Source: Chlorobiota bacterium (lineage in GTDB: Bacteria; Bacteroidota; Chlorobiia; Chlorobiales; Chlorobiaceae). From it: a DNA stretch of 39,183 bases. The notes beneath the pieces were generated by a model. It had not been told where the DNA came from. It did not search any database and saw nothing but the letters and a program-made list of their open reading frames with translations. Numbering within the stretch: position 1 is the first letter of the stretch; each line of letters opens with the position of its first letter. The position numbers and the translations under genes were made by a program. Below, piece by piece: positions 6,644 through 39,183 of this stretch. Location of the stretch: positions 1-39,183 of the forward strand of contig VGMX01000019.1 of NCBI GenBank assembly GCA_016866305.1, in the 5' to 3' direction.

Positions 6644-7249
6644 CTAACATCCGGCAAAATTCTTCAGGATCTGCAATCCGGCCGCTGAACTTTTTTCCGG
6701 ATGAAACTGTACAGCGAAAATACCATTTTTTTCGATGGCCGAACAGAAATTTTTACCGGCAAACCATGTGGTTGCCGCAATATCCTCCTGATTCTGCGGA
6801 TCGCAGTAGTAGGAGTGGACAAAATAGAAAAACGTATGGTCCCCGATCCCCCTGAACAGAATGCTCTCTTTTTTCAGATCGACGGAATTCCAGCCGATCT
6901 GGGGAATCTTGTCGGTTTCGCTTTGGAAATGCACCACCTTTCCGGGAACAAGATTCATGCCCCGGTGGGAACCCATCTCCTCGCTTTCCCCGAGAAGCAG
7001 TTGCATACCGAGGCAGATGCCGAGAAGGTGACCCCCCTTGTCGACATGCTCAAGTACTGCATCGGTGAATCCCGAAGCGTTCAGGGAATCGATAGCCTGA
7101 CCGAAAGCACCGACTCCGGGCAGCAGCACCTTCCTGAAACCGGAGAGCTTGCGGGGATCGCTGCTTACAACAGCCCTGAGTCCGAGATACTCGAAAGCTT
7201 TCCTTACTGAATGAAGATTCCCGGCACCGTAATCAGCAATAAAAATCAT
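6644..7249 (-). CDS. hisH: HisH: glutaminase subunit of imidazole glycerol phosphate synthase
   Basis: A 201-residue class I glutamine amidotransferase that frees ammonia from glutamine and passes it to HisF. It opens with IFIADYGAGNLHSVRKAFEYLG, typical of HisH. The catalytic cysteine lies in GICLGMQLLLG, and the His-Glu pair lies in FAVQFHPEKSS near the end. Length is normal. It is the first gene of the minus-strand run that continues into hisA, scpB, rluB and the HhH protein. Its promoter must lie in the 184-base divergent spacer shared with nfnA. No hisF is in the window. Confidence 0.95.
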   Translation of the reverse strand: MIFIADYGAGNLHSVRKAFEYLGLRAVVSSDPRKLSGFRKVLLPGVGAFGQAIDSLNASGFTDAVLEHVDKGGHLLGICLGMQLLLGESEEMGSHRGMNLVPGKVVHFQSETDKIPQIGWNSVDLKKESILFRGIGDHTFFYFVHSYYCDPQNQEDIAATTWFAGKNFCSAIEKNGIFAVQFHPEKSSAAGLQILKNFAGC

Positions 7250-7433
7250 ACAAGATCAAAGCGTCATAGTGATTGTCTTCCTGAAGCGGTAAAACCGGAA
7301 TGCCATTTCCGGACGCACTTTTCCCTGGAGGCCATTTTTTTGTTCGGCATTTATTGCTTATAATACTTTTTCCTTTTGCCTCGCCGAAACGATCAGCAGT
7401 TCTCCATAACCATACAGAACCTAAAAAAAACAA

Positions 7434-8391: not shown

Positions 8392-9840
8392 ATGGATCCA
8401 AAACCAATGACGACCAAGGAGCGCCTTGCCATACCGCGCCAGGCAATGCCGGCGCAGGACCCGAAAGAGCGCATTCACAACTTCAGAGAGGTCAATCTCG
8501 GCTATACCCCCGAACTTGCGCAGCAGGAGGCCATGCGGTGCATCCAGTGCAAGGATCCGGTCTGTATCAAGGGGTGCCCGGTGAACATCAAGATCGACAG
8601 GTTCATCAAGCTTGTTGCCGAAGGCAACTTTCTCGGAGCGGCAAAAAAAATCAAGGAGGACAACGTGCTGCCGGCAATCTGCGGCAGGGTCTGCCCGCAG
8701 GAAGACCAGTGCGAAAAGGTATGTGTCCTGACGAAAAAGTACACGCCTGTCGCAATCGGCAATCTGGAACGCTTTGTTGCCGACTACGAGCGGGAGCAGG
8801 GAAAGATCGAACTGCCGGACGTAAAACCGGCGTCCGGAAAAAAGGTTGCCGTTATCGGAAGCGGGCCTGCAGGACTGAGCTGTGCGAACGACCTTGCCCG
8901 TCTCGGCCATTCAGTCACGGTTTTTGAAGCACTGCACGAACTGGGCGGCGTCCTCATGTACGGCATTCCGGAATTCCGGCTTCCCAAGGATATCGTGAAA
9001 ACCGAAATCGAAGGTATGAAGAAGCTCGGCGTGAAATTCGTCACCAATACCGTTGTCGGCCGTTCCGTCACCATTGACGAGCTTATGGGGGAGGAGCATT
9101 TCGACGCGATTTTTATCGGGGTCGGTGCAGGGCTGCCCTGGTTCATGGGAATTCCCGGAGAAAACCTGCTCGGAGTCTATTCGGCAAACGAGTTCCTTAC
9201 CAGGGTCAACCTGATGAAAGCATACGATTTTCCCCGGTCCGATACCCCTGTATTTGACTGCCGGGGAAAGAACGTCGCGGTATTCGGAGGCGGCAATACG
9301 GCCATGGACGCGGTGCGTACCGCCAAACGGCTCGGCGCTGAACATGCCTATATCGTTTACCGGCGCTCGGAAGCAGAAATGCCGGCACGCGCAGAAGAGA
9401 TCCACAACGCAAAGGAGGAGGGCATCGAGTTTCTGCTCCTGATGAATCCGGTGGAGTTCACCGGCAACGAAGAGCAGTGGCTGACCGGGGTTAAATGCAT
9501 CCGCATGGAACTCGGCGAACCCGATGAATCAGGACGCCGCAAGCCGGTTCCGGTGAAAGGCTCGGAGTTCCTACTCCCTGTAGACATGGCGGTCATTTCA
9601 ATCGGCAACGGCTCCAATCCCCTGATCAGGCAGACCACCCCGGACATCGAGGTCAGCAAGCGGGATACCATCGTTGTAGACATCAATACCATGGCGACAT
9701 CGAAAGAAGCTGTCTACGCCGGAGGAGACATCGTTACCGGAGGGGCAACCGTCATTCTCGCCATGGGCGCAGGACGCACTGCCGCAAGGGCCATCCACGA
9801 AAAGCTCACAGGCACCGCTCCGAATTTTAACGAATGGTAA
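8392..9840 (+). CDS. nfnB: NfnB-like subunit (glutamate synthase small-subunit family, NADPH-dependent)
   Basis: A 482-residue flavoprotein of the GltD/NfnB/SudA family. The N-terminal Cys-rich domain (MRCIQCKDPVCIKGCPV and ICGRVCPQEDQCEKVCV) binds two [4Fe-4S] clusters. The FAD-binding site is VAVIGSGPAGLSCANDLARL near residue 150, and the NADPH-binding site is NVAVFGGGNTAMDAVRTAKRLG near residue 292. The C-terminal FAD motif is VYAGGDIVTGGATVILAMGAGR. No GltB-like large subunit is nearby and nfnA lies directly upstream, so Nfn is favoured over glutamate synthase. The ribosome site AAGGAAG precedes the ATG by about 5 bases. The 112-base gap to nfnA shows no clear terminator. Confidence 0.88.
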   Translation: MDPKPMTTKERLAIPRQAMPAQDPKERIHNFREVNLGYTPELAQQEAMRCIQCKDPVCIKGCPVNIKIDRFIKLVAEGNFLGAAKKIKEDNVLPAICGRVCPQEDQCEKVCVLTKKYTPVAIGNLERFVADYEREQGKIELPDVKPASGKKVAVIGSGPAGLSCANDLARLGHSVTVFEALHELGGVLMYGIPEFRLPKDIVKTEIEGMKKLGVKFVTNTVVGRSVTIDELMGEEHFDAIFIGVGAGLPWFMGIPGENLLGVYSANEFLTRVNLMKAYDFPRSDTPVFDCRGKNVAVFGGGNTAMDAVRTAKRLGAEHAYIVYRRSEAEMPARAEEIHNAKEEGIEFLLLMNPVEFTGNEEQWLTGVKCIRMELGEPDESGRRKPVPVKGSEFLLPVDMAVISIGNGSNPLIRQTTPDIEVSKRDTIVVDINTMATSKEAVYAGGDIVTGGATVILAMGAGRTAARAIHEKLTGTAPNFNEW

Positions 9841-9858
9841 AGGATTCCTGAACGAACA

Positions 9859-27409: not shown

Positions 27410-28465
27410 TCATGTTCCGGATTCACCACCGAAAAACTTTTCCCTGAACCAGAGCGCCACATTCACCAGACCGATCAGCGCAGGAACCTCCACAAGCGGA
27501 CCGATCACCGCGGCGAACGCCTCTCCCGAATCGATGCCGAACACCGCCACGGCCACGGCGATTGCGAGCTCGAAGTTGTTGCTCGCGGCCGTAAAGGAGA
27601 GCGTGGCTGTTTTGGAGTAATCCGCTCCGACCTTCCGCCCCATCCAGAAAGAAACAAGGAACATGATGATGAAGTAGCCGAGCAAAGGGATGGCAATGCG
27701 AACGACATCCATGGGAATTTTCACGATATACTCACCTTTGAGCGAGAACATCACCACGATGGTGAAAAGCAGCGCAATGAGCGTAAGAGGACTGACGCGC
27801 GGCACGAAGACGGTTTCGTACCACTCCCTGCCTTTGAGGCGGAGCATGACGAACCGGGTAAGAAAACCCGCTATGAAGGGAATGCCGAGATAGATGAAGA
27901 CCGACGAGGCGATTTCGGCGATGGTGATATCGACCCTGAAGGATGAGAGGCCGAGCCAGCCGGGCAGCACCGTGAGGAAGACCCATGCGTAGACGGAGAA
28001 GAACAGCACCTGGAAAACCGAATTGAAGGCGACGAGACCTGCTGCGTACTCCGTATCGCCTTTTGCCAGTTCGTTCCAGACGATCACCATGGCGATGCAG
28101 CGCGCCAGGCCGATCATGATGAGCCCGGCCATGTAGTGCGGCATATCGGAAAGAAAGAGCACGGCAAGCACGAACATGAGCACCGGCCCGATCACCCAGT
28201 TCTGCAGGAGCGAAAGTCCGAGCACTCTGGTGTTGCGGAAAACGTCGCCAAGCTCCTCGTACTTCACCTTGGCCAGGGGCGGATACATCATCACGATGAG
28301 CCCTATGGCGATGGGAATATTGGTGGTGCCAGACTGAAAGGTGTTCCAGAACGCCGCCGTACCGGGAACAAGATAGCCCGAAAGTACGCCGATACCCATA
28401 GCGAGAAAGATCCACAGCGTGAGGTAACGATCGAGAAAGGAGAGCTGTTTCGTTGACATGCCCAT
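27410..28465 (-). CDS. acr3: Arsenite efflux transporter Acr3
   Basis: A 351-residue ten-helix membrane protein that exports As(III). The conserved cysteine of transmembrane helix 4 is in [19 protein letters not shown], and the conserved glutamate near the end is in [15 protein letters not shown]. Helices such as [19 protein letters not shown] and [22 protein letters not shown] match Acr3 and not ArsB. The ATG at 28465 is selected because AGGAAG sits 8 bases before it; the frame is open 63 codons farther upstream, but that part overlaps arsC. Four bases separate it from the arsC stop, so they are coupled. Confidence 0.93.
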
Positions 28466-28469
28466 GGCG

Positions 28470-28898
28470 CTATCTTCCTGCCTGCATTTCGTTAGAGAAG
28501 CTTCTGAACCCTTCGCGGATTTCGTCGCGAACCCGCCTGAACACGGCAAGCACCTCTTCGCGGCTCCCTTCGGCTTCCGCAGGATCGTCAAACCCGATGT
28601 GTACCCGGTGCTTGACCTCACCCGTAAAGACGGGGCAGGACTCCTTTGCCCCATCGCAGACCGTCACGACCCGGTCGAAGGCCATGGAAGTGAATTCCTC
28701 GACGCTTTCCGGACGTTTCGCGCTGATATCGATCCACTCTTCGCGCATCACTGCCACAGCAAGCGGATGCACGGCTTCAGCAGGGTTCGTGCCGGCCGAA
28801 AAAACCTCGAGTTCCGGATCGAACGAACGCAGGAACCCTTCGGCCATCTGGCTCCGGCAGGAGTTCCCGGTACAGAGAATAAGCACGGACTGTTTCAT
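28470..28898 (-). CDS. arsC: Arsenate reductase, low-molecular-weight phosphatase type (thioredoxin-coupled)
   Basis: A 142-residue enzyme that reduces arsenate to arsenite for export by Acr3. The P-loop is [13 protein letters not shown] with the nucleophilic Cys near residue 9. The later cysteine pair lies in [12 protein letters not shown], where the disulfide relay of thioredoxin-type ArsC is found. The acid-base aspartate is in [10 protein letters not shown]. The ATG at 28898 is 22 bases from the end of the 142-bp repeat, which therefore forms its immediate upstream region. Confidence 0.93.
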
Positions 28899-28916
28899 GA
28901 ATTCAGTATTGAGTAT

Positions 28917-29066
28917 TGTAGGGCACCTCTATAAAGTGTGATGAGCGATCAAAGTGCAAGGCGGACGGAGCGGAGAAACCGGAGTGTACACGTAGTACAT
29001 GAGGATTTCGAGCACCGACCAACGCAGCAATTTGGGTGCGCAATAACTTTATAGAGGCGCCCTGTA
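28917..29066. mobile_element. MITE-like element, copy 1, with TGTA target duplication
   Basis: A 142-bp element at 28921-29062 flanked by TGTA on both sides (28917-28920 and 29063-29066). The ends are inverted repeats: GGGCACCTCTATAAAGT on the left and its complement on the right match at 16 of 17 bases. The core from about 28958 to 29031 is nearly identical to copy 2. No transposase gene fits inside; small open frames reading Cys-rich peptides are spurious. It lies between the permease stop and arsC, so it splits the probable ars operon. A mobilising transposase would have to be elsewhere. Confidence 0.8.
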
Positions 29067-29067
29067 T

Positions 29068-30141
29068 TCATAAGGTTGGAAAGACTGTATTGAAGACGAA
29101 TCCCACCAGCATGATGCCGAGGGCCACCACACCGGCGAACACCGCGATAAGCTGCGGCTTGAGCACCTTGCGCAGGATGATCATTTCGGGAGCGGAGAGC
29201 GCGATCACGCTCATCATGAAGGCCATGACCGTACCGAGCGCGGCGCCCTTTCCGAGCAGCGCCTGCACCACGGGAAGGATACCTGCGGCATTGGAATACA
29301 TCGGTACTCCGAGCAGTACCGCTGCGGGCACCGACCACCAGGCCTCCGCACCCATCACCGAAGCCATGAAGTTCTCCGGCACATAGCCGTGAATACCGGC
29401 GCCGAGACCGACGCCAAGCACAATATAGAGCCAGACCTTGCCCACGATCTCGCGCACATGCGTTACGCCATTCTGCAGGCGACTTTTCCAGCTCATGGCT
29501 TCGTCCGTTTCAATGGCACCGCAGCTGCAGTTCTGCTGCAGCTGCTGCACCCACTCCTCGATCCAGCGCTCCATACCGAGCCGGCCTATCGTCATGCCGG
29601 CGACTATCGCCACGAGCAGCCCCATCGCCATGTAAAGCAGGGCGACTTTCCAGCCGAACATGCCGAAAAGCAGCGCAAGCGCCACCTCGTTGACCATTGG
29701 AGCCGAGATCAGGAAGGAGAAGGTGACGCCGAGCGGCACGCCGGCCTGCAGGAACCCGATGAAGAGCGGCACTGCCGAACAGGAACAGAAGGGCGTCACG
29801 ATGCCGAGCGAGGCAGCAAGCACGTTACCCGCACCGAGACGCCTTCCCGACAGGATTGCCCGCGTCCGCTCCGCGGAGACGAAGGTGTGGATGACCCCCA
29901 TCACGAAGACCACGCCGGCCAGCAGCAGCAGCACCTTGGGAACCTCATAGATGAAGAAGTGCAGCGCCTCGCCGAAACGGGTCGCCCGACTGATGCCCGC
30001 CGTTCCGAGCAGGAAATCCGCTGCGGGTTCGAGGTTGCCGTAGACCAGCAGCCAGAGAAACCCCGTCAAGGCAACCGTAGCGAAAAGCTTCAGCGTTACC
30101 AGAGCGGCTGCCGGTTGTCGATTTGTGCTCATGGCGCTCAT
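29068..30141 (-). CDS. ArsP/SO_0444-type permease (DUF318), probable organoarsenical or metal export
   Basis: A 357-residue membrane protein with 8-10 helices. The conserved block GIVTPFCSCSAVPLFIGFLQAGVPLG is followed by SFLISAPMVNEVALALLFGMFG; the CxC pair and the second-half block GVPMYSNAAGILPVVQALL are typical of the ArsP/SO_0444 permease family. A hydrophilic loop near residue 205 is Cys-rich (QQNCSCGAIETDEA). Family members export trivalent organoarsenicals; other members are known only by association with thioredoxin-like proteins and ArsR, as here. It is placed 34 bases after the small thioredoxin gene. By eye its codon use is more GC-rich than in the adjacent genes, hinting at transfer. 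Confidence 0.85.
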   Translation of the reverse strand: MSAMSTNRQPAAALVTLKLFATVALTGFLWLLVYGNLEPAADFLLGTAGISRATRFGEALHFFIYEVPKVLLLLAGVVFVMGVIHTFVSAERTRAILSGRRLGAGNVLAASLGIVTPFCSCSAVPLFIGFLQAGVPLGVTFSFLISAPMVNEVALALLFGMFGWKVALLYMAMGLLVAIVAGMTIGRLGMERWIEEWVQQLQQNCSCGAIETDEAMSWKSRLQNGVTHVREIVGKVWLYIVLGVGLGAGIHGYVPENFMASVMGAEAWWSVPAAVLLGVPMYSNAAGILPVVQALLGKGAALGTVMAFMMSVIALSAPEMIILRKVLKPQLIAVFAGVVALGIMLVGFVFNTVFPTL

Positions 30142-30175
30142 ACCGTACGTTCCGGATCAGTTTCGGCACTTCAAC

Positions 30176-30466
30176 CTAACAGCAACTGCTTCCGTTTCCT
30201 CCGCCGCCGCAGCACCCTCCCTTTTTTGCCGGACCCGCAAGCAGTTCCTTCAGCTCGGAGGCCGACGGGACGCGGCCTTTACAGCGCACCTCGCCGTCAA
30301 CGACAAGCGCGGGAGTCGAAAGCACATTGTAGGCCATGATCTTCTGCATATCCTCCACCTTTTCCACCTCCGCTTCGATGCTTTCCGAAGCGATGACCGC
30401 GTTGACGGCATCGGCGAGCTGATTGCATTTCGCACAACCCGTACCGAGAATTTTTACCTGCTTCAT
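30176..30466 (-). CDS. Small thioredoxin-like (redox-active disulfide protein 2 type) with Cys-rich tail
   Basis: A 96-residue protein with the active site TGCAKCNQLADAV near residue 9 and the cis-proline turn STPALVVDGEV near residue 50. The tail has GGCCGGGGNGSSCC, four extra cysteines that could bind a metal(loid). Such proteins commonly pair with SO_0444/ArsP permeases and may hand reduced arsenicals or a metal to the permease; that is inference from association. It has its own ArsR-type palindrome 26 bases upstream of its start. Confidence 0.85.
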   Translation of the reverse strand: MKQVKILGTGCAKCNQLADAVNAVIASESIEAEVEKVEDMQKIMAYNVLSTPALVVDGEVRCKGRVPSASELKELLAGPAKKGGCCGGGGNGSSCC

Positions 30467-30491
30467 GATTTTTCTTCCCTTTTATCTGTTT

Positions 30492-30507
30492 ATCGCAAAT
30501 GAACGAT
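30492..30507. promoter_or_regulatory. ArsR-type operator in front of the thioredoxin-permease genes
   Basis: ATCGCAAATGAACGAT, a 16-base inverted-repeat site (ATCG, 8 bases, CGAT), matching the site before arsR at 14 of 16 positions and at nearly the same distance from its gene. Confidence 0.65.
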
Positions 30508-30540
30508 TATTATAAAAAAGCAATGACCTGCCGCATGCGC

Positions 30541-30873
30541 TCAGCAATGACAAACCCCGCTGCGACCCCGCTCGAAAAATGCCCCGAAAAGCCGCTGTGC
30601 ACGATCCCAGTTCTGCCGGTTGATACAGTACTTGACTTTCGGGGGATCGATCTCACCCTGAATCATCCCGGCTTCGAGGAGCGCCTTCAGATGCTGGGAA
30701 ATTGTTGATTGAGCCATCGGAATCACTTCCGTCAGCTCTCCGGTAAAACAGCAGGTTTCTCCGGCAAGCAGCCCGAGTATTTTAATCCTGACAGGATGGC
30801 TGAGCGCCTTGGCTATTCCGGAAAGAGCCAGCTCATCTTCAGTATAGGTCACATCCGATAACGTTCGCTGCAT
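30541..30873 (-). CDS. arsR: ArsR/SmtB-family metalloregulatory repressor
   Basis: A 110-residue winged-helix repressor. IAKALSHPVRIKILGLLAGETCCFTGEL is the N-terminal helix block, with adjacent cysteines in the metal-sensing alpha-3 region, and AQSTISQHLKALLEAGMI is the recognition helix. The C-terminus ends GVCHC, adding thiols that could join the metal site. The ATG at 30873 is preferred over one at 30921, because the latter would place a likely promoter and operator inside the coding region. It should respond to As(III) or Sb(III). The promoter and operator lie immediately upstream. Confidence 0.9.
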   Translation of the reverse strand: MQRTLSDVTYTEDELALSGIAKALSHPVRIKILGLLAGETCCFTGELTEVIPMAQSTISQHLKALLEAGMIQGEIDPPKVKYCINRQNWDRAQRLFGAFFERGRSGVCHC

Positions 30874-30894
30874 CAGGATCCCATTTTTTAGTTC

Positions 30895-30910
30895 ATCGCA
30901 AATATACGAT
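30895..30910. promoter_or_regulatory. ArsR-type operator in front of arsR
   Basis: ATCGCAAATATACGAT, with ATCG and CGAT half sites, 22 bases upstream of the arsR ATG. It overlaps the -10 box of the predicted arsR promoter, the expected arrangement for self-repression. Confidence 0.65.
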
Positions 30911-30929
30911 AAGCAAAACAAAACAACAA
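30901..30929 (-). promoter_or_regulatory. Predicted arsR promoter
   Basis: On the minus strand TTGTTG (30924-30929) and TATATT (30901-30906) are 17 bases apart, close to the sigma-70 ideal. The -10 lies within the palindrome. Upstream sequence is rich in A and T. Confidence 0.6.
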
Positions 30930-31134: not shown

Positions 31135-31284
31135 ATAAGGGTATCTCGAAAAAGTGTCGTGAGCGCCTGGAGAGCAAGGCGGACGGAGCGGAGAAACCGG
31201 AGTGTACACGGAGTACATGAGGATTTCGAGCACCGACCAACGCAGCAATCCGGGTGCGGAATAACTTTTTCGAGGTGCCCATAA
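31135..31284. mobile_element. MITE-like element, copy 2, with ATAA target duplication
   Basis: A 142-bp element at 31139-31280 in the same orientation and of exactly the same length as copy 1, flanked by ATAA on both sides (31135-31138, 31281-31284). The left end GGGTATCTCGAAAAAGT pairs with the right end at 15 of 17 bases. The two mismatches would be G-U pairs in RNA. The core is almost identical to copy 1, while the ends differ in a way that keeps pairing within each copy. Confidence 0.8.
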
Positions 31285-31304
31285 ATCATTTTCATATAAC
31301 AACG

Positions 31305-31936: not shown

Positions 31937-33460
31937 ATGAAATCAAAGAATGGCATCAATAGAACTTCGACAGTACTGGATATCGGAAGCCTTTCAAGTC
32001 ATTTGTGGGAAGCTGCCAATATCCTTCGAGGGCCTGTCGATGCCGCAGATTTCAAGACTTACATCTTCCCGTTACTCTTTTTCAAGCGACTCTCCGATGT
32101 TTATGACGAGGAGTTTGCTGCCGCTTTTGACGAGTCCGCTGGTGATGTGGAATTTGCCCGGTTTCCCGAGAACCATCGTTTTCAGATTCCGGATGGCTGT
32201 CATTGGGAGGAAGTTCGGGAACGGAGCGCTAATATCGGCCATGCTCTTCAGAAGGCCATGCGTTGCATCGAGCAGGCCAACCCCGACTCGCTTCATGGTA
32301 TTTTTGGAGATGCCCGGTGGACAAACAAGGAGCGTCTCTCCGACACACTGCTTAAAGACCTGATTGAACATTTCTCTTCGCTTGATCTTGGCAATGAGCA
32401 CTGCAAGGCGGACATCCTTGGCCAGGCTTATGAATACCTGATCAAGAAATTTGCCGATCTGACCAACAAGAAAGCAGGTGAGTTCTACACCCCACGTTCT
32501 GTAGTTACGCTGATGGTTCGCATCCTTGCGCCGCAAACCGGTGAGACAATCTATGACCCGGCCTGTGGAACGGGAGGCATGCTTCTCGAAGCCCTTCATT
32601 ACGTCAAAGAGCATGGTGGCGATCAGAATCTCATGTTGGGGAAACTCTTCGGGCAGGAGAAGAATCTGACAACCTCTTCTATCGCCCGCATGAACCTCTT
32701 TTTGCATGGCGCAGAGGATTTTCATATCGAGCGTGGGGATACCTTGCGCTCTCCCTCCTTCTATTCGGGTGACAACCTTGCGGCTTTCGACTGCGTTATC
32801 GCCAATCCTCCGTTTTCCCTTGAAAAATGGGGAGAAGATGTCTGGCTCAATGATCCTTATGGGCGGAATTTTGCGGGTCTGCCACCGGCCAAATCGGGTG
32901 ACTATGCCTGGGGGCAGCACATGGTCAGTTCTATGGCATTCAGAACAGGACGTATGGCCGTTGTGCTTCCTCATGGCGTTTTGTTCCGGATGTCAAAGGA
33001 AGGCGAAATCCGTCGCAAGCTTCTCGAAATGGATATTCTCGAAGCGGTGATAGGTCTCGGGCAAAACATATTCTATGGCACAGGTCTCGCCCCTTGCTTG
33101 CTTGTTTTTCGTGATATCAAACCGACAGAGCATCGTAAGAAGGTGCTGTTTATTGACGCATCGAAGGAGTTCAAGACCGGTCGTGCCCAGAATGAACTCT
33201 TGCCTGAGCATGTCGAGCGCATCCATCGTTGGTACCAAGAGTATCGGGATGTCGAAGGCGTTTGCCGGGTGGTTACGCTCGATGAAATCCGGGAAAACGA
33301 TTTCAATCTGAACATCCCTCGATACGTGGAACCGGTGATCGAGGAAGAGTCAATGACTGTAGATGAAGCAGTCGAGAACCTCAAGCAGTCACTACAGGCC
33401 GCTTATGCGGCTGAAGACCGGTTGAAGGAGCTGCTGATAAGGGAGGGTTTGCTGTCATGA
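31937..33460 (+). CDS. hsdM: Type I restriction-modification methyltransferase subunit HsdM (first copy)
   Basis: A 507-residue N6-adenine methyltransferase. The HsdM N-terminal helical domain covers about residues 15-150 (LSSHLWEAANILRGPVDAADFKTYIFPLLFFKRLSDVYDEE). The SAM motif YDPACGTGG starts at residue 206 and the catalytic NPPF at 290. GEFYTPRSVVTLMV before motif I is typical of the family. The C-terminal helices would contact HsdS. It overlaps the next gene by 4 bases (ATGA). It is clearly related to, but far from identical with, the second hsdM at 35087, so this is not a recent duplication. Confidence 0.92.
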   Translation: MKSKNGINRTSTVLDIGSLSSHLWEAANILRGPVDAADFKTYIFPLLFFKRLSDVYDEEFAAAFDESAGDVEFARFPENHRFQIPDGCHWEEVRERSANIGHALQKAMRCIEQANPDSLHGIFGDARWTNKERLSDTLLKDLIEHFSSLDLGNEHCKADILGQAYEYLIKKFADLTNKKAGEFYTPRSVVTLMVRILAPQTGETIYDPACGTGGMLLEALHYVKEHGGDQNLMLGKLFGQEKNLTTSSIARMNLFLHGAEDFHIERGDTLRSPSFYSGDNLAAFDCVIANPPFSLEKWGEDVWLNDPYGRNFAGLPPAKSGDYAWGQHMVSSMAFRTGRMAVVLPHGVLFRMSKEGEIRRKLLEMDILEAVIGLGQNIFYGTGLAPCLLVFRDIKPTEHRKKVLFIDASKEFKTGRAQNELLPEHVERIHRWYQEYRDVEGVCRVVTLDEIRENDFNLNIPRYVEPVIEEESMTVDEAVENLKQSLQAAYAAEDRLKELLIREGLLS

Positions 33461-34980
33461 GAATAAAGGTCTTTATCAGCTCTGTTCAGAAAGAACTCGG
33501 AGATGAGCGGCTTGCGTTGCAGATTCTTCTTTCTACTGATCCGTTTCTTTCCCTGCATTGTGTTCCGGTTTTATTCGAAGACGAGCCAACGACACTATAT
33601 CCTGACCCACAGGCTTACCTTGCGTTACTGAAAACCTGTCATGTGTATGTGGGAGTTGTGTGGAAAGAGTACGGCAGGTTGATCGATGGGCTCTCTGCAA
33701 CTCACCATGAATACCGTCTCTCCAGAACACTGCCGTTACCAGCACTTGTTGCAATCAAAGGTCCCAATGATCTTGCCCGATCGCCGGAAACCAACGCATT
33801 CATAGAAGAAATCAAAAGGGACGGCCATACCTACGAGCGATTTGAAAGCACGGAAGAACTGCAGGAAAAAGTCCGGAAACGACTGGTTCGTTACATCAAG
33901 GACTCCTACGACATAGAGCCTACAAGCGATCAGAATACATCAGCCCATAAAACAATTCATATCGCATCTCTGTTTGAGCGTCAACGCCTTGAGGTACTTC
34001 CCTGGAGCGGCATTGATACCTCTATTGCTGTTCGTATGGTTGCAAGTTCGGAAAACCTTCCTGCCGGGAGCATAAACAGTGATGAGGTGATGCATGCGCT
34101 CTGGGAACGAGGTTACTTGTGGAAAGATGAGGACAAGCGATTTTTCGCGACAGCAGCCGGAATCATGCTTCTTGCGCCTGATCCTTCAAAGTATTTCGCC
34201 CATGCCCGCATTCAGGTAGCCGCATACGCTGGGAGTGTTCGTACAGCCACCCCATCTGATCATGCGACTATCAGAAAACCATTGTCAGAAGCCATTGATG
34301 AGGTGGTCGCCTTTATCCGAAAAAACACGAGACATCCGTTGCGCATCGTCGGTTTGCAGAGAATCGAAGTGAATGAATATCCCGAGGCCGCCTTGCGCGA
34401 GGCACTTGTAAATGCTTTGGCCCATCGCGACTATGAGGATGCTGGCAGAAGAGTAACTGTTGATCTGTTCAGGGACAGAATCGAAATTATCAGTCCGGGT
34501 GCTCTTCCGGGAAATCTGAGTCTTGCAAAACTTCGTTCAGGAAAAGCCCGGTCACAATCGCGAAACCCGAATATCGCACAAGGACTGGTTTTTCTTGGTC
34601 GAATGGAAGAGCGAGGCACCGGTATTATCCGTATGCGTGATTCAATGCTGAACCACGGCCTTGATGCCCCGCTTATTGCAATATCCGATAACGAGGTCGT
34701 GGTAACATTGATCGGTCCAGGAGAAAATATGGAGCGGATACTGTTGCCTGAAAACATCACCGGAGGCATCAGTCCTGCTGTCGCTGAAAAGCTGAATGAA
34801 CGGCAGAGGGCGATACTGGCCGAAATTGTAAAAAGCGGCTCCGTTACCACCGGCTGGATTACCAAAACCCTCGGGGTCTCCAAAGACACGGCTTTCAGAG
34901 ATGTCAGAGAGCTTGTTGCCTTTGGCTTGATAGAACCTGAAGGAGAAGGACGGGGACGCCATTATATCCTTAAACCGTAA
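33457..34980 (+). CDS. DUF4062 - HATPase - winged-helix protein embedded in the type I locus
   Basis: A 507-residue multidomain protein. Residues 1 to about 150 are DUF4062-like (KVFISSVQKELGDERLAL, LLKTCHVYVGVVWKEYG, ATHHEYRLSRTLPLPALVAIKG), a Rossmann/TIR-like fold seen in defence and NTPase proteins. Residues of about 170-430 match the C-terminal part of RecG-like AlbA_2 proteins: PEAALREALVNALAHRDY at 310-326 (the HATPase N box, Asn319) and GRMEERGTGIIRM. The end (ERQRAILAEIVKSG, then TLGVSKDTAFRDVRELV) is a winged helix. The usual AlbA_2/Schlafen N-terminal domain is replaced by DUF4062. The ATGA overlap with hsdM1 ties it to the modification system. Function is unknown; a sensor or regulator in defence is inference. 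Confidence 0.75.
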   Translation: MRIKVFISSVQKELGDERLALQILLSTDPFLSLHCVPVLFEDEPTTLYPDPQAYLALLKTCHVYVGVVWKEYGRLIDGLSATHHEYRLSRTLPLPALVAIKGPNDLARSPETNAFIEEIKRDGHTYERFESTEELQEKVRKRLVRYIKDSYDIEPTSDQNTSAHKTIHIASLFERQRLEVLPWSGIDTSIAVRMVASSENLPAGSINSDEVMHALWERGYLWKDEDKRFFATAAGIMLLAPDPSKYFAHARIQVAAYAGSVRTATPSDHATIRKPLSEAIDEVVAFIRKNTRHPLRIVGLQRIEVNEYPEAALREALVNALAHRDYEDAGRRVTVDLFRDRIEIISPGALPGNLSLAKLRSGKARSQSRNPNIAQGLVFLGRMEERGTGIIRMRDSMLNHGLDAPLIAISDNEVVVTLIGPGENMERILLPENITGGISPAVAEKLNERQRAILAEIVKSGSVTTGWITKTLGVSKDTAFRDVRELVAFGLIEPEGEGRGRHYILKP

Positions 34981-35003
34981 TGGTCAGGAGTAGTCTGGAA
35001 TTG

Positions 35004-35058
35004 AAAAAAACGTCCGATAATCGTCCGAGTATTTTTCGATAATCGTCCGATAATCGTT
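35004..35058. repeat. Array of 11-bp units upstream of hsdM2
   Basis: CGATAATCGTC at 35015-35025 and 35037-35047, and CGATAATCGTT at 35048-35058, fall on an exact 11-base period. A diverged unit starting CGAG fills 35026-35036, and a CGTC end precedes them at 35011-35014. The core CGATAATCG is itself a palindrome. It lies in the 106-base gap between the DUF4062 gene and hsdM2, close to one helical turn per unit, as expected for tandem binding sites. Confidence 0.7.
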
Positions 35059-35086
35059 GAAATATGAGGATGTTTAAGCCTTATCG

Positions 35087-36619
35087 ATGAAGAAGAAGAG
35101 CCACATTTCCCAATCTGAACTGGAGTCCTACCTCTGGGGTGCGGCTACCCTGTTGCGCGGCTATATCGATGCCGGGGATTACAAGCAGTTCATTTTTCCT
35201 CTGCTGTTCTACAAGCGGTTGTGCGATGTATATGATGAGGAGCTGAATGAGGCTTTGGAGGAATCAGATGGCGATCAGGAGTATGCCGCTCTTCCCGAGC
35301 AGCACCGGTTTCAGATTCCGGAGGAGGCACATTGGAATGTCACCCGAACCAAAGTCAGGAATGTGGGTAAGGCGATTCAGGACGCCCTTCGTGACATCGA
35401 AAAGGCAAATCCCGACACCTTGTTCGGTGTTTTCGGCGATGCCCAGTGGACCAACAAAGATCGCTTGCCTGACCATATGTTGCGGGAGTTGATCGAACAC
35501 TTCAGCACGAAAACGCTTTCGCTTTCAAACTGCCCGGAAGATGAACTCGGGATCGGCTACGAGTTTCTGATCAAGAAGTTTGCTGACGATTCAGGTCACA
35601 CCGCTGCGGAGTTCTACACAAACCGCACCGTGGTGCACCTCATGACCGAGCTGCTCGAACCGATGCCGGGTGAATCGATCTACGATCCGACGTGCGGTTC
35701 TGCTGGCATGTTGCTCTCTGCGGTCGCTCATTTGAAACAGCAGGAAAAAGAGTGGCGAAATCTCCGACTGTTTGGGCAGGAACGCAATCTGCTCACCTCG
35801 GCCATTGGCAGAATGAACCTTTTCCTTCACGGCATCGAGGACTTCCGCATTGTTCGGGGCGATACCCTCGCCCATCCTGCGTTTGTCGAAGTCGACCACT
35901 TAATGAAGTTCGATGTTGTCCTTGCCAATCCGCCTTACTCGATCAAACAGTGGGATCGAGAGGCATGGGCTGCCGATCCCTGGGGGCGGAATATCTACGG
36001 CACTCCGCCACAGGGCCGTGCCGATTATGCTTTCTGGCAGCACATCATTGCAAGCATGAACGCCCGTTCTGGTCGTTGTGCGATTCTCTTTCCGCACGGA
36101 GTCCTTTTCCGGAAAGAGGAACTGTCGATGCGCGAAAAGCTGATTGCTCATGACGTGGTGGAGTGTGTGCTGGGCCTTGGGCCGAATCTGTTCTACAACT
36201 CACCAATGGAAGCCTGTGTGGTCATTTGCCGGATGGATAAGCCCAAAGAACGCAGGAACAAGGTGCTGTTCATCAACGCGGTGAATGAGGTGACCCGTGA
36301 ACGGGCACAGAGTTTTCTTACCGATGACCATATCCAGCGGATCGTTGGTGCATATCAGGCTTTTGCCGATGAGGATGGCTTTGCTCGTGTGATCGGCAAT
36401 GATGAAATCAGGGAGAAGGGATGCAGCCTCAGTATTCCGCTGTATGTCCGGGCAGTGACCAACCGAGCGATGTCGGTATTGGAGGATTCGGATCGGTATG
36501 GACAGAATTCCCTGCAAAAGGCGATTGATAACTGGCAGGATAGCTCAAAGGCATTGCGAGAATCTATGGACGAAATGTTATCAATGTTGAAAGAATACCA
36601 AGATGATCAAGCGAATTAA
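35087..36619 (+). CDS. hsdM: Type I restriction-modification methyltransferase subunit HsdM (second copy)
   Basis: A 510-residue N6-adenine methyltransferase with the same layout as the first copy: HsdM N-domain (LESYLWGAATLLRGYIDAGDYKQFIFPLLFYKRL), AEFYTNRTVVHLM, SAM motif DPTCGSAG from residue 200, and catalytic NPPY at 281. Motif I differs (TCGSAG against ACGTGG), and the C-terminus is of a different type (NSLQKAIDNWQDSSKALRESM). Both copies keep the catalytic motifs, so both may be active. It is separated from the upstream gene by the 11-bp array and overlaps the next gene by 17 bases. Confidence 0.92.
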   Translation: MKKKSHISQSELESYLWGAATLLRGYIDAGDYKQFIFPLLFYKRLCDVYDEELNEALEESDGDQEYAALPEQHRFQIPEEAHWNVTRTKVRNVGKAIQDALRDIEKANPDTLFGVFGDAQWTNKDRLPDHMLRELIEHFSTKTLSLSNCPEDELGIGYEFLIKKFADDSGHTAAEFYTNRTVVHLMTELLEPMPGESIYDPTCGSAGMLLSAVAHLKQQEKEWRNLRLFGQERNLLTSAIGRMNLFLHGIEDFRIVRGDTLAHPAFVEVDHLMKFDVVLANPPYSIKQWDREAWAADPWGRNIYGTPPQGRADYAFWQHIIASMNARSGRCAILFPHGVLFRKEELSMREKLIAHDVVECVLGLGPNLFYNSPMEACVVICRMDKPKERRNKVLFINAVNEVTRERAQSFLTDDHIQRIVGAYQAFADEDGFARVIGNDEIREKGCSLSIPLYVRAVTNRAMSVLEDSDRYGQNSLQKAIDNWQDSSKALRESMDEMLSMLKEYQDDQAN

Positions 36620-38933
36620 TGTTCTAAAAGGAGTTGGTCGTTTTGCCCAGCTTAATCCCGTGCGAGGAGCAGAAGGTGATTTCGCCAGTTTGAATGTAAT
36701 CTATGGGAGCAATGCTTGCGGAAAAAGTACCCTGTGCGACGTTTTCCGATCTATTGACACAGGAAATCCAAGCTATGTGATTGGTAGAAAGAGACTTGGT
36801 TCAAATGACCAACCAGAGGTCGTTGTTTTGATGGACGGGGGGCAAACAATCCGATTCCAAGGTGCTCAATGGTATGGGCGTGAAAATTGTCAGCCAATTC
36901 ATGTCTATGATGACAGGTTTGTGGCGGAGAATGTTTTTATCGGTCATCACATAAGCGTCGATCAACGCCGTAACCTTTATGGAATAGTAATCGGGGATCA
37001 AGCCATTGTTTTGCAGCAGGCGGTTGATAACGCCGAACAACAACTAAGCAGTGCTACCACTGCGTTAAATACTGCACAGGCAAACCTCAACAGGCTAATT
37101 CCCATCGGTTCCACTATAGAATCGTTTAGAAGGCAGGCGGCAGTAGACGATGTTGATACGAAAATCGCGGAAGCAACCCGCGAATTACGTTTAGCTGAAC
37201 AAGCAAAAACAAAGACAGATGCTATTCAGGCTCGCAGGCCGCTGGCCACATTGCCGATAGCGGAGGTTCCCGAGTCATTGGATAGGGTGTTGAACTCAAC
37301 ACTCGATAGTGCCTCTCTAGCTGCGGAAGAAAAAATCAGGAATCATCTCGCGGCTACATCTCAAGGGCTTTCAATAAGCTGGATTAAACAAGGTTTCGAT
37401 TCACAAATCAGTACGACGTGCCCCCACTGTGGGCAGGATATGCAGGGTCTGGACATTCTGGATTCATATCGCTTGTTCTTCTCCGGCGAACTACAAGCTC
37501 AGGATCAGCTTCGGGAGTCGGTACAGTCAGCTTTGCAGAGAGCATTTGGTGAAGCTGCACAAAATCAGTTTAGGCAGATTTTCATCTCTCACGGCACAGA
37601 GCAAGATTGGTGGAAGGATGTAGCTGGGTATGAATTTTCTTTGCCAGAAATCGGCGATATCGACACCATACTGGCTTTACTACAAGGAGCTTGTCTGGCG
37701 ATAGATTCTGCGTTGAAACGAAAGCAGGCAAGTCCGGGAAGCGAAATAACCCTGACTGTTGAAGAGTCTACCGAAATTACTTCTTGGAGGGGGACGGTTG
37801 CCAAACTGAGAGCCTACAATGAAGCATTAAGTACTATAAATGCTGAGCTGCAAGTTCGTCAAGCCAGCGCCGGAGAAATCGATCTGGCCCCATTGCAGCA
37901 AAGAGTGTCTACCTTAAATAACAGCAAGAAAAGACATGAGTCAGAAACTGTAACTGCTTACTTAGAATACGATGCTGCTGCCATCCAGAAATCAACGGCC
38001 CAAAGGGAAAAGCAAGGAGCCAACGATGCACTTCGTGAGCAATCCAACCAGTTGTTCGAGCGTTATGGTAGTCGAATCAATGAGTTGCTGACACGTTTTG
38101 GGGCTGATTTTCAGATTGTAAGTGATGGAGTGAATTTCAGAGGCGGTCCCCCATCTGGACAACTTGCAGTTAAAGTTTGTGGAGAGAGGGTATCAGCTAC
38201 ACCTGAAGCTGCCTCTGACCCCTCACAGGTTTCATTGGCAAATACATTGAGCGGTGGAGATCGTAGTACATTGGCGCTCGCCTATTTCTTGGCAAAGGTT
38301 GAGATGGCAGCAAATGTGGCTCGTTCAATCGTGGTGTTTGATGACCCATATCATAATCAGGATCGAAGTCGGCGACAGTGTACGATTGAAAGAATTCATC
38401 ACCTTACGGGAATTGCAAATCAGTGCTTTGTATTTTCACATGATCTCGAATTCGCGAGAGCCGTTGAGAAACGCCCAGGCACCACGGCAAAAACCTTTGT
38501 CCTTAATCCTCTTAGTGATTCGACAACACTTGAGGCCAGGACTCTGCCTCTTCTACCCAGTCAAGCCTATTTGAAAAATTATCATCTCCTGCACAATTAT
38601 TCTGAGAGCCCGGCGGGCTATCTTCAGCATCTAAAAGAGGTTGCCGATACGCTTCGTGTCATTTTGGAAGAGTACCTTCGCCTCAAATTTCCTAAAGCAT
38701 GGGCTGAGAACGACTGGCTGGGAGATATGATTCGGAAAATCCGAGAAGCTCAAGCGGGAACACCACTATCTTTGTGCCAGCCCTTGGCTGAGGAACTGGG
38801 TTATATCAATACTTACTGCCAGCGTTTTCATCATGGTGGAACTGGAGAGGTGGCGGACGAACCTGAACCAAGAGAACTGAAAACTTATGTAGATAGAACT
38901 CTTAACGTGATTCACGCCGGAGGGCATAGATGA
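36603..38933 (+). CDS. rloC: RloC-like zinc-hook ABC ATPase, probable anticodon nuclease (AAA_13 family)
   Basis: A 776-residue protein. Walker A GSNACGKST is at 35-43. A long coiled coil is interrupted by CPHCGQD at 273-279, a zinc-hook (CxxC) as in Rad50 and RloC. The ABC signature LSGGDRSTLALAYFLAK begins at 549, and Walker B IVVFDDPYHNQDRSRR has Asp580-Asp581. The C-terminal region has RVILEEYL (Arg685, Glu689) and FHHGGTGE (His743/744), placed like the Arg-Glu-His triad of PrrC/RloC anticodon nucleases. RloC genes are found inside type I hsd loci and are thought to cut tRNA when restriction fails or DNA damage occurs. Length suits RloC. The triad spacing is longer than I expect, so nuclease activity is not certain. 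By eye it is more AT-rich than the genes in the left part of the window. Confidence 0.8.
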   Translation: MIKRINVLKGVGRFAQLNPVRGAEGDFASLNVIYGSNACGKSTLCDVFRSIDTGNPSYVIGRKRLGSNDQPEVVVLMDGGQTIRFQGAQWYGRENCQPIHVYDDRFVAENVFIGHHISVDQRRNLYGIVIGDQAIVLQQAVDNAEQQLSSATTALNTAQANLNRLIPIGSTIESFRRQAAVDDVDTKIAEATRELRLAEQAKTKTDAIQARRPLATLPIAEVPESLDRVLNSTLDSASLAAEEKIRNHLAATSQGLSISWIKQGFDSQISTTCPHCGQDMQGLDILDSYRLFFSGELQAQDQLRESVQSALQRAFGEAAQNQFRQIFISHGTEQDWWKDVAGYEFSLPEIGDIDTILALLQGACLAIDSALKRKQASPGSEITLTVEESTEITSWRGTVAKLRAYNEALSTINAELQVRQASAGEIDLAPLQQRVSTLNNSKKRHESETVTAYLEYDAAAIQKSTAQREKQGANDALREQSNQLFERYGSRINELLTRFGADFQIVSDGVNFRGGPPSGQLAVKVCGERVSATPEAASDPSQVSLANTLSGGDRSTLALAYFLAKVEMAANVARSIVVFDDPYHNQDRSRRQCTIERIHHLTGIANQCFVFSHDLEFARAVEKRPGTTAKTFVLNPLSDSTTLEARTLPLLPSQAYLKNYHLLHNYSESPAGYLQHLKEVADTLRVILEEYLRLKFPKAWAENDWLGDMIRKIREAQAGTPLSLCQPLAEELGYINTYCQRFHHGGTGEVADEPEPRELKTYVDRTLNVIHAGGHR

Positions 38934-39183
38934 GTGAATTTAAACCCGGTTGGAAGATGGTAAAGTTCGGTGAGGTGGTTAAGAACGCCAATCTTGTGGA
39001 GCGCGATCCCGAGGCCAATGACATTGAAAGAATCGTTGGACTGGAACACATCGATCCCGAGAATCTGCATATTCGACGTTGGAACTCCGTTGCGGATGGG
39101 ACCTCGTTTACCCGCAAGTTTGTGCCGGGACAAACGCTCTTTGGCAAGCGCCGGGCTTATCAACGCAAAGTCGCCTATGCCGA
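38930..39183 (+). CDS. hsdS: Type I restriction-modification specificity subunit HsdS, 5' part (cut by window end)
   Basis: The ATG at 38930 overlaps the RloC stop as ATGA, and the frame stays open to the last base (84 full codons). The start FKPGWKMVKFGEVVKNANLVER is typical of HsdS, and GLEHIDPENLHIRRWNSV followed by FVPGQTLFGKRRAYQRKVAYA matches the N-terminal half of a target-recognition domain. HsdS gives the complex its DNA sequence specificity. The rest of the gene, and probably hsdR, would lie beyond the window. Confidence 0.9.
   Translation, partial: MSEFKPGWKMVKFGEVVKNANLVERDPEANDIERIVGLEHIDPENLHIRRWNSVADGTSFTRKFVPGQTLFGKRRAYQRKVAYA

What the first reader, a model, noticed from the sequence alone, without database searches (positions are those of the whole stretch)
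31937..39183. Type I defence locus with two different HsdM genes, a DUF4062-HATPase protein and a RloC-like ATPase
Order is hsdM1, DUF4062/HATPase/wHTH, hsdM2, rloC-like, hsdS, with overlaps of 4, 17 and 4 bases at three of four junctions. Both HsdM proteins keep SAM and NPPF/NPPY motifs but differ strongly, so this is not a simple duplication. Classical type I systems need one M, one S and one R gene. Two M proteins plus two ATP-binding accessory proteins could form a mixed methyltransferase or a two-layer system in which the RloC-like nuclease answers restriction failure. I know of hsd loci with rloC, but not of this exact arrangement.
Basis: partly seen in the sequence, partly recalled or inferred. 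Interest (0 to 1): 0.75.

Follow-up and report, generated by a model that had tools for sequence, protein, structure and literature searches.

The report
Two-methylase restriction locus with NADase cargo
A green sulfur bacterium carries a DNA-restriction system of a known two-methyltransferase kind (one marks adenine, the other cytosine) with extra defence genes lodged inside it; one of these, a predicted NAD-destroying protein, is followed by a short repeated DNA 'address' that its own DNA-binding helix appears to read, which I have not found described before.

Summary
In detail: hsdM1, DUF4062-HATPase-wHTH ('DH'), hsdM2, RloC-like ATPase and the start of hsdS, with 4-, 17- and 4-base overlaps. 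The window is a whole contig. A near-identical relative has the intact locus (M1-DH-M2-ATPase-S-X1-X2-R), and X1-X2-hsdR lie at another contig end here. The two HsdMs are one-to-one relatives of PacII M1 (NPPF, m6A) and M2 (NPPY, m4C), so this belongs to the known heterodimeric M1M2S type I class. Relatives keep M1-M2-S-R and swap cargo, including DH. DH's N-terminus has a TIR/NDT fold and an invariant glutamate; DUF4062 was recently reported as an antiphage NADase. The ATPase has RloC's motifs. New here: DH genes carry a 3' array of three direct repeats (AATC + 6 variable bases, spaced 11 and 21/22 bp) in 27 of 29 non-redundant loci, against 2 of 600 shuffles and 2 of 521 other gene ends. The variable bases covary with the wHTH recognition helix (r 0.69, partial Mantel p 1e-4) and not with the rest of the protein (r 0.04). 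In the window the array is 35008-35050. I infer that each DH binds its own array. What that binding does is open.

The parts
31937..33460 (+). hsdM1: m6A-type (NPPF) methyltransferase subunit of an M1M2S type I system
   Evidence: Pfam N6_Mtase/HsdM_N; PDB best hit PacII M1 7vru_A 605 bits vs 482 for M2
33457..34980 (+). DH: DUF4062 (TIR/NDT-like fold, candidate catalytic Glu85 at 33709-33711) + GHKL HATPase_c_4 (residues 330-418) + DeoR-type winged helix (about 440-507); predicted NADase effector with sensor
   Evidence: Pfam; AF2 model pLDDT 87.7; TIR/NDT matches Z 11-13 over residues 1-150; Glu85 and GHKL motifs invariant in 54 homologues; DUF4062 NADase preprint PMC13174449
34873..34920 (+). 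DH winged-helix segment, residues 473-488 (recognition helix 476-488), that covaries with the repeat word
   Evidence: sliding-window and per-residue correlation peak, residue 477 highest
35008..35050 (+). three direct repeats AAACGTCCGA (35008), AATCGTCCGA (35019), AATCGTCCGA (35041), plus a degenerate fourth (AATCGTTGA) at about 35052: the array that belongs to DH
35087..36619 (+). hsdM2: m4C-type (NPPY) methyltransferase subunit
   Evidence: PDB best hit PacII M2 7vru_B 631 bits vs 450 for M1; M2-type Arg (PacII R29) conserved as R24
36603..38933 (+). RloC-like ABC ATPase: Walker A, CPxC zinc hook (273-276), LSGG signature, Walker B, Arg685-x3-Glu689-x53-His743 (cargo gene)
   Evidence: AAA_13; motifs; invariance in an 11-sequence alignment with plasmid homologues and near-invariance in a 12-sequence alignment with viral-contig homologues; Rad50/SMC head fold
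38930..39183 (+). hsdS 5' end (84 codons; N-terminal target recognition domain), truncated by the contig end
   Evidence: PADLOC Specificity_I; relative G026 has the full 407-aa gene with Methylase_S

Best explanation
This is a heterodimeric m6A/m4C type I restriction-modification operon whose backbone (hsdM1-hsdM2-hsdS-hsdR) carries interchangeable defence cargo. M1, M2 and S should form one M1M2S methyltransferase, marking adenine on one strand and cytosine on the other; HsdR on the neighbouring contig adds restriction. DH, lodged between hsdM1 and hsdM2, is a predicted TIR-like NADase effector joined to a GHKL ATPase and a winged helix. The winged helix of each DH binds a private three-site DNA array at the 3' end of its own gene, here 35008-35050. 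The RloC-like ATPase is a second cargo effector, probably a Rad50-like sensor with a C-terminal HEPN-type RNase. Shown here: gene content, one-to-one M1/M2 relationship, cargo swapping, conserved array geometry, array-helix covariation. Inferred: NADase activity, the C-terminal RNase, array binding, and that binding keeps DH low or inactive until infection disturbs it.
For: M1 and M2 each prefer their own PacII partner (605/482 and 631/450 bits); PacII M1M2S makes m6A and m4C (PMC9613975); G026 HsdS N-terminal half matches PacII S TRD1. Intact eight-gene locus with one S and one R in G026, and matching X1-X2-hsdR at the C30 end. Backbone 80-85% conserved with different cargo in relatives. dN/dS 0.06-0.31 for all compared genes. 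DUF4062: TIR/NDT fold, Glu85 and GHKL residues invariant in 54 homologues. Array: 27/29 loci vs 2/600 shuffles and 2/521 control gene ends; none in 400 bp upstream in 26 loci; the pair occurs once per genome in G000, G026 and G030. Word vs recognition helix r 0.69, partial p 1e-4; rest of protein 0.04; the C-terminal stretch nearer the array 0.095, which argues against simple linkage.
Against: No experiment. Binding of the array is inferred from covariation in 24 loci; registers were set by an AATC anchor and two words (L092, L109) were fixed by hand, although without that the result was nearly the same (r 0.66). DH homologues under 40% identity have another spacing (11+9) in 16 of 40 and none that I could see in others. 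In 20 of 26 loci a same-strand gene follows the array, so local regulation of that gene is not excluded. The ATPase triad spacing (x53) lies just outside the published RloC range (x36-52). The C19-C30 junction is inferred from G026; about 1.2 kb is missing.
Confidence: 0.72

Rival explanations
1. The array is an ordinary operator: DH is a transcription factor that regulates the next gene (here hsdM2 and beyond), so DH is a control gene of the RM operon rather than an effector.
For: In the window, L093, L104 and L109 the array lies just before an RM gene; in 20 of 26 loci a same-strand gene follows. RptR shows that type I islands can carry dedicated repressors (PMC12255303).
Against: Six of 26 loci have a convergent neighbour and still carry the array; DH is often away from RM genes; the DUF4062 domain with its invariant glutamate has no role in this reading; DH is an insert in an operon that lacks it in relatives.
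Confidence: 0.25
2. M1 and M2 are two independent methyltransferases (two systems stacked), M1 with DH and M2 with the ATPase, S and R.
For: M1-DH stands without M2 in G030.
Against: M1 and M2 are adjacent without DH in five relatives, with a single S where the locus is complete; one-to-one match to the two subunits of a solved single complex; G030 holds the first 15 codons of hsdM2.
Confidence: 0.05
3. The word-helix covariation is a by-product of recombination that moves the 3' end of the gene and the array as one block, without binding.
For: Array and winged helix are physically adjacent, and wHTH-plus-array remnants exist.
Against: The C-terminal residues lying between helix and array do not correlate (r 0.095) while residues 477-481 do; geometry is kept while words change.
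Confidence: 0.08
4. The 776-aa ATPase is not an RNase-bearing RloC relative but another Rad50/SMC-type defence ATPase whose effector is elsewhere.
For: No solved RloC or PrrC hit by sequence; the C-terminal helical domain was not tested separately; spacing of the triad is off by one.
Against: Arg685, Glu689 and His744 invariant and His743 nearly so, together with the CPxC hook; size 776 aa within 658-897.
Confidence: 0.3

Closest known systems
PacII non-canonical type I system (M1M2S, m6A/m4C; PMC9613975, PDB 7vru/7vs4)
   Same: two different HsdM subunits (NPPF and NPPY), one HsdS; each subunit here is closest to its PacII counterpart; M2 Arg29 kept; S TRD1 of the relative G026 matches PacII S TRD1
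   Different: cargo genes lie between hsdM1 and hsdM2, between hsdM2 and hsdS and between hsdS and hsdR; specificity and methylation not measured. Cargo in the PacII locus itself was not checked.
Swarozyc (DUF4062 NADase, KpSwz; preprint PMC13174449)
   Same: DUF4062 TIR-like domain with an invariant glutamate, and a winged-helix-type C-terminal auxiliary domain
   Different: DH has a GHKL ATPase between the two and a cognate DNA array; in KpSwz the auxiliary domain binds the phage portal protein; DH NADase activity untested
RloC/PrrC anticodon nucleases (PMC2610378)
   Same: ABC ATPase, CXXC hook, Arg-x3-Glu-...-His, size
   Different: His spacing x53 rather than x36-52; substrate unknown; homologues on plasmids mostly away from type I genes
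DarTG2 embedded between hsdS and hsdR of a type I RMS (RRDM island, PMC12255303)
   Same: abortive-type defence cargo inside a type I operon; that paper also notes an RNA-binding-protein/AAA-ATPase pair at hsdS-hsdR, which may correspond to X1-X2 here
   Different: different effectors, insertion also between the two hsdM genes, and cargo carrying its own array
SLFN AlbA_2-HATPase_c_4-wHTH proteins (PDB 3lmm DIP2311; C5 locus of this genome)
   Same: HATPase_c_4 + winged helix; also lodged in type I loci; whole-model match Z 22.1
   Different: other N-terminal domain; in-frame 12-nt coding repeats upstream of the wHTH instead of the 3' array

Membership tests
Heterodimeric m6A/m4C type I RM (M1M2S) | two different HsdM subunits in one operon with one HsdS | tested here: met
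   intact locus in G026
Heterodimeric m6A/m4C type I RM (M1M2S) | one M with NPPF, one with NPPY, each closest to its own PacII subunit | tested here: met
   sequences
Heterodimeric m6A/m4C type I RM (M1M2S) | M2-type arginine (PacII R29) | tested here: met
   aligned R24 in hsdM2; hsdM1 also has Arg at this position
Heterodimeric m6A/m4C type I RM (M1M2S) | hsdR of the same system | tested here: met
   in G026 and G012 in place; in G000 on contig C30, junction inferred
Heterodimeric m6A/m4C type I RM (M1M2S) | m6A on one strand and m4C on the other | not testable with these tools
   needs a methylome
DUF4062 NADases (Swarozyc) | DUF4062 domain with TIR/NDT fold | tested here: met
   Pfam E 9.4e-14; structural matches DNPH1, MilB, plant and SARM1 TIR, SPARTA TIR, Z 11-13
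DUF4062 NADases (Swarozyc) | conserved catalytic glutamate | tested here: met
   Glu85 invariant in 54 homologues; its equivalence to KpSwz E97 is inferred from position, not aligned
DUF4062 NADases (Swarozyc) | NAD+ hydrolysis and abortive infection | not testable with these tools
   no experiment
DUF4062 NADases (Swarozyc) | portal-sensing auxiliary domain | not tested
   DH has GHKL + DeoR-type wHTH; no direct comparison with KpSwz was made
RloC | ABC ATPase motifs and CXXC zinc hook | tested here: met
RloC | Arg-x3-Glu-x36-52-His near the C-terminus | tested here: inconclusive
   R685-x3-E689-x53-H743 (x54 to H744), invariant or nearly so; spacing one beyond the published range
RloC | tRNA anticodon nuclease activity | not testable with these tools
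   no experiment

The most novel reading that the evidence does not exclude
DH is a DNA-tethered NADase guard: it is held inactive on three sites beside its own gene, each lineage with its own repeat word read by a matching helix, and it is released or switched on when a phage (or failure of the surrounding restriction system) disturbs that DNA. This would be a self-addressed abortive-infection system that carries its target site with it as it moves between loci.
Probability: 0.2. Interest if true: 0.85.

Novelty: new variant of a known kind. Interest (0 to 1): 0.6.

Why it matters
The two-methylase part is known, but the locus shows a conserved m6A/m4C type I backbone being used as a dock for exchangeable abortive-infection cargo. 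The DH family adds something I did not find in the papers searched: a predicted NADase that travels with a three-site DNA array whose sequence changes in step with the protein's recognition helix. If binding is confirmed, this gives a natural helix-to-sequence code for a winged-helix family, a bioinformatic handle to find and type these defence genes, and a direct way to ask how a DUF4062 NADase is kept silent.

Tried and rejected
Simple hsdM duplication: rejected, each M matches a different PacII subunit. Separate M1-DH system: rejected, G030 is a recent truncation. Second hsdS in the genome for this system: only the 5' piece on C19 and the C5 system's hsdS were found. AAA_13 relatives: rare, 3 of 394 genomes of the phylum at E 1e-60; scattered on plasmids, mostly away from type I genes. 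Phage decoy arrays: 72 viral-contig matches to the two-site patterns, 3 with a third copy, none convincing; most are probably chance. Array as a general feature of HATPase_c_4-wHTH genes: rejected for the SLFN type, which has in-frame 12-nt coding repeats. Linkage as the cause of covariation: the stretch nearer the array does not correlate. No separate fold search was made for the ATPase C-terminal domain; the PDB rows covered residues 1-652 only. The 2016 m4C type I paper and the 2024 'embedded defences' preprint are not held, so they were not read. Searches for prior description of the array found nothing, which is weak evidence of novelty.
Full report
CHECK OF THE OBSERVATION. The window is the whole of contig C19 of a 2.24-Mb, 47-contig genome, which from its relatives (Chlorobium sp. 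N1 and a Chlorobiaceae MAG among them) is a green sulfur bacterium. The locus is therefore cut by the assembly, inside hsdS.

THE REST OF THE LOCUS. The genome has one other complete type I system, on C5 (hsdR, hsdM, AlbA_2-HATPase, hsdS, OLD-like ATPase). A second hsdR lies at the end of C30, preceded on the same strand by a GNAT-domain gene that runs off the contig (X1) and an AAA-kinase-like gene (X2). Relative G026 carries the uninterrupted locus with proteins 92-99% identical, HsdS apart: M1, DH, M2, ATPase, S (407 aa), X1, X2, R. So C19 and C30 almost certainly join across about 1.2 kb, and the system has two M, one S and one R. The window's HsdS N-terminus is only 48% identical to G026's, so specificity probably differs.

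THE TWO HsdMs. Against solved structures, M1 is closest to PacII M1 (7vru_A, 605 bits; 482 for M2) and M2 to PacII M2 (7vru_B, 631; 450 for M1). [quoted passage not shown]). The M2-type arginine is kept. The N-terminal half of the G026 HsdS matches PacII S TRD1, which reads the cytosine-modified half site. I therefore place the backbone in this known class; the methylation itself is not shown.

CARGO. Among 98 genomes of the class, M2 relatives (80-83% identical) occur in G036, G064, G083, G035 and G082 with M1 directly next to it and no DH. Cargo between M2 and S and between S and R differs: a 344-aa gene; a 211-aa gene plus SLFN-HATPase; X1-X2; in G012 SLFN-HATPase, the ATPase, then PRTase and reverse-transcriptase genes. 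The order M1-DH-M2 is shared by G000, G026 and G012, by Mariprofundus and by a Deltaproteobacterium; in Rhodopirellula DH sits between S and R of the same kind of system. Of 80 DH loci, 18 have hsdM plus hsdS or hsdR within six genes and 37 have at least one type I gene (many contigs are short). [quoted passage not shown] coli island (PMC12255303). In G030 the homology stops after 15 codons of hsdM2, and M1-DH shows no synonymous difference from G026, so it is a fresh remnant. All compared genes are under purifying selection between G000 and G026 (dN/dS 0.06-0.31; few changes in DH). DH and the ATPase are less diverged (97-100% DNA identity in most stretches) than hsdM2 (90-96%) or hsdR (84-98%), as expected if cargo moves independently.

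WHAT DH IS. The AlphaFold2 model from 54 sequences is good (pLDDT 87.7). Residues 1-150 match nucleoside-deoxyribosyltransferase-like enzymes (DNPH1, MilB) and TIR domains (plant, SPARTA, SARM1) at Z 11-13; the whole model matches 3lmm, a protein of the HATPase_c_4 kind, at Z 22. Glu85 and the GHKL residues are invariant. A May 2026 preprint reports that DUF4062 is a TIR-like NADase and that bacterial members (Swarozyc) give abortive phage defence (PMC13174449). NADase activity of DH is an inference from these facts.

WHAT THE ATPase IS. It has Walker A, CPxC, LSGG, Walker B and Arg685-x3-Glu689-x53-His743-His744; these are invariant or nearly so in divergent homologues. The published RloC rule is Arg-x3-Glu-x36-52-His with a CXXC hook and 658-897 aa (PMC2610378). 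Residues 1-652 match Rad50/SMC/RecF heads. RloC-like is fair; strict membership is inconclusive.

THE ARRAY. The DH-hsdM2 spacer holds AAACGTCCGA (35008), AATCGTCCGA (35019) and AATCGTCCGA (35041). Similar arrays follow DH genes elsewhere, also where hsdR, hsdS or a convergent gene comes next. I asked for three 8-mers (at most 1 mismatch between neighbours) spaced 10-11 and then 20-23 within -60 to +140 of the stop codon: 27 of 29 non-redundant DH loci of at least 40% identity have them, against 2 of 600 shuffled sequences and 2 of 521 3' ends of other genes in the same loci. The first copy starts within 12 bases of the stop in 24 of 27. Spacing 11+21 is by far the commonest (20 of 30; 11+22 in 6). 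DH relatives under 40% identity have an 11+9 spacing in 16 of 40. In 26 loci, each searched with its own word, there are 91 copies in the array region, none in the 400 bases upstream, and 0.012 per 220 bases elsewhere. In G000, G026 and G030 the two-site core occurs once per genome, behind DH. Two relatives (G068, G079) keep only the DH C-terminus, with an array still behind it.

COVARIATION. The unit is AATC plus six variable bases (GTCCGA, GTCAGA, ATCCGA, GTTAAG, TACTAC, TATCAC, GGCTCA and others). Loci with the same word share recognition-helix residues (ATCCGA with VRDTA; GTCAGA with TRDT..RDF; TTAA words with S[RAG]P; TA[CT][TC]AC words with A[LY][LQ]TV; GGCTCA and GCCTCA with [SR]ATA.RLL). 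Word distance against helix distance gives r 0.69; against residues 1-430, 0.04; against residues 489-504, which lie nearer the array, 0.095. Partial Mantel for the helix given the rest is 0.69, p 1e-4. A scan along the protein peaks at residues 473-488, with residue 477 highest. Caveats: 24 loci, an anchored register, two words corrected by hand (before correction r 0.66).

HOW IT PROBABLY WORKS. Shown: composition, relationships, array and covariation. Inferred: M1M2S marks host sites with m6A and m4C, and HsdR cuts unmarked DNA; the RloC-like protein and DH are second-line effectors acting on RNA and NAD+. Each DH binds three sites on about one face of the helix beside its own gene. Because the array is at the 3' end, never upstream in the loci tested, and is present whatever follows, I favour a role in holding or assembling DH itself over control of the next gene, but regulation of the next gene is a live rival.

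VERDICT. The new part is the DH array and its helix code, found only by comparing loci. I rate it a new variant of a known kind.

Noticed in passing
window 28920-29071 and 31138-31289: A 152-nt direct repeat (85% identical) beside the arsenic-resistance genes next to the RM locus.
   Followed up: no
window 27410-30921 (- strand): Genes that read like an arsenic-resistance cluster (ACR3-like and other permease, ArsC-like, redox protein, ArsR-like) directly upstream of the RM locus; from the translations, not searched against families.
   Followed up: no
L010 (G000 C5:98000-114000): Second, complete type I system with an AlbA_2-HATPase gene whose 12-nt coding repeats give SEQVSEQVSEQV just before the winged helix; such coding repeats recur in SLFN-HATPase genes.
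   Followed up: partly
L044 2895-5480 (-) (G012): PRTase-CE/wHTH and reverse-transcriptase genes (retron-like) lodged between hsdS and hsdR; hsdM2 and the ATPase are each split into two frames in that genome.
   Followed up: no
L043 84-2123 (-) (G030, Chlorobium sp. N1): After 15 codons of hsdM2 the sequence turns into other DNA with a NACHT-like ORF; hsdM2 and the ATPase were not found in that assembly.
   Followed up: partly
L046 near 6950-7400 and 9500-9850; L047 2540-2900 (G068, G079): Isolated DH winged-helix fragments, with CGTCCG repeats still behind one fragment in each genome: remnants of lost DH genes.
   Followed up: partly
L247 (IMG/VR contig), - strand near 2470-2760: Tandem 11-bp repeats of several words (ATCAGG/GTCAGG, ATCCGA, GGCTCA-like) with hairpins and no DH gene in the 4.3 kb held; neighbours of unknown family. 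Possible orphan or decoy arrays.
   Followed up: partly
DH loci under 40% identity (e.g. L142, L148, L152-L154): Another array type, copies 11+9 apart (AAAGGGCTCA, AAACCCGCCA, AAACGCACCA), often running into the coding 3' end as KGSKGS-like tails.
   Followed up: partly
L092, within about 115 bases after the DH stop: Two successive triplet arrays with different words (TACTAC, then GACCGA) behind one DH gene.
   Followed up: no
window 39183 / L009 end: The assembly breaks inside hsdS and the missing ~1.2 kb was not found elsewhere in the genome; cause unknown.
   Followed up: partly
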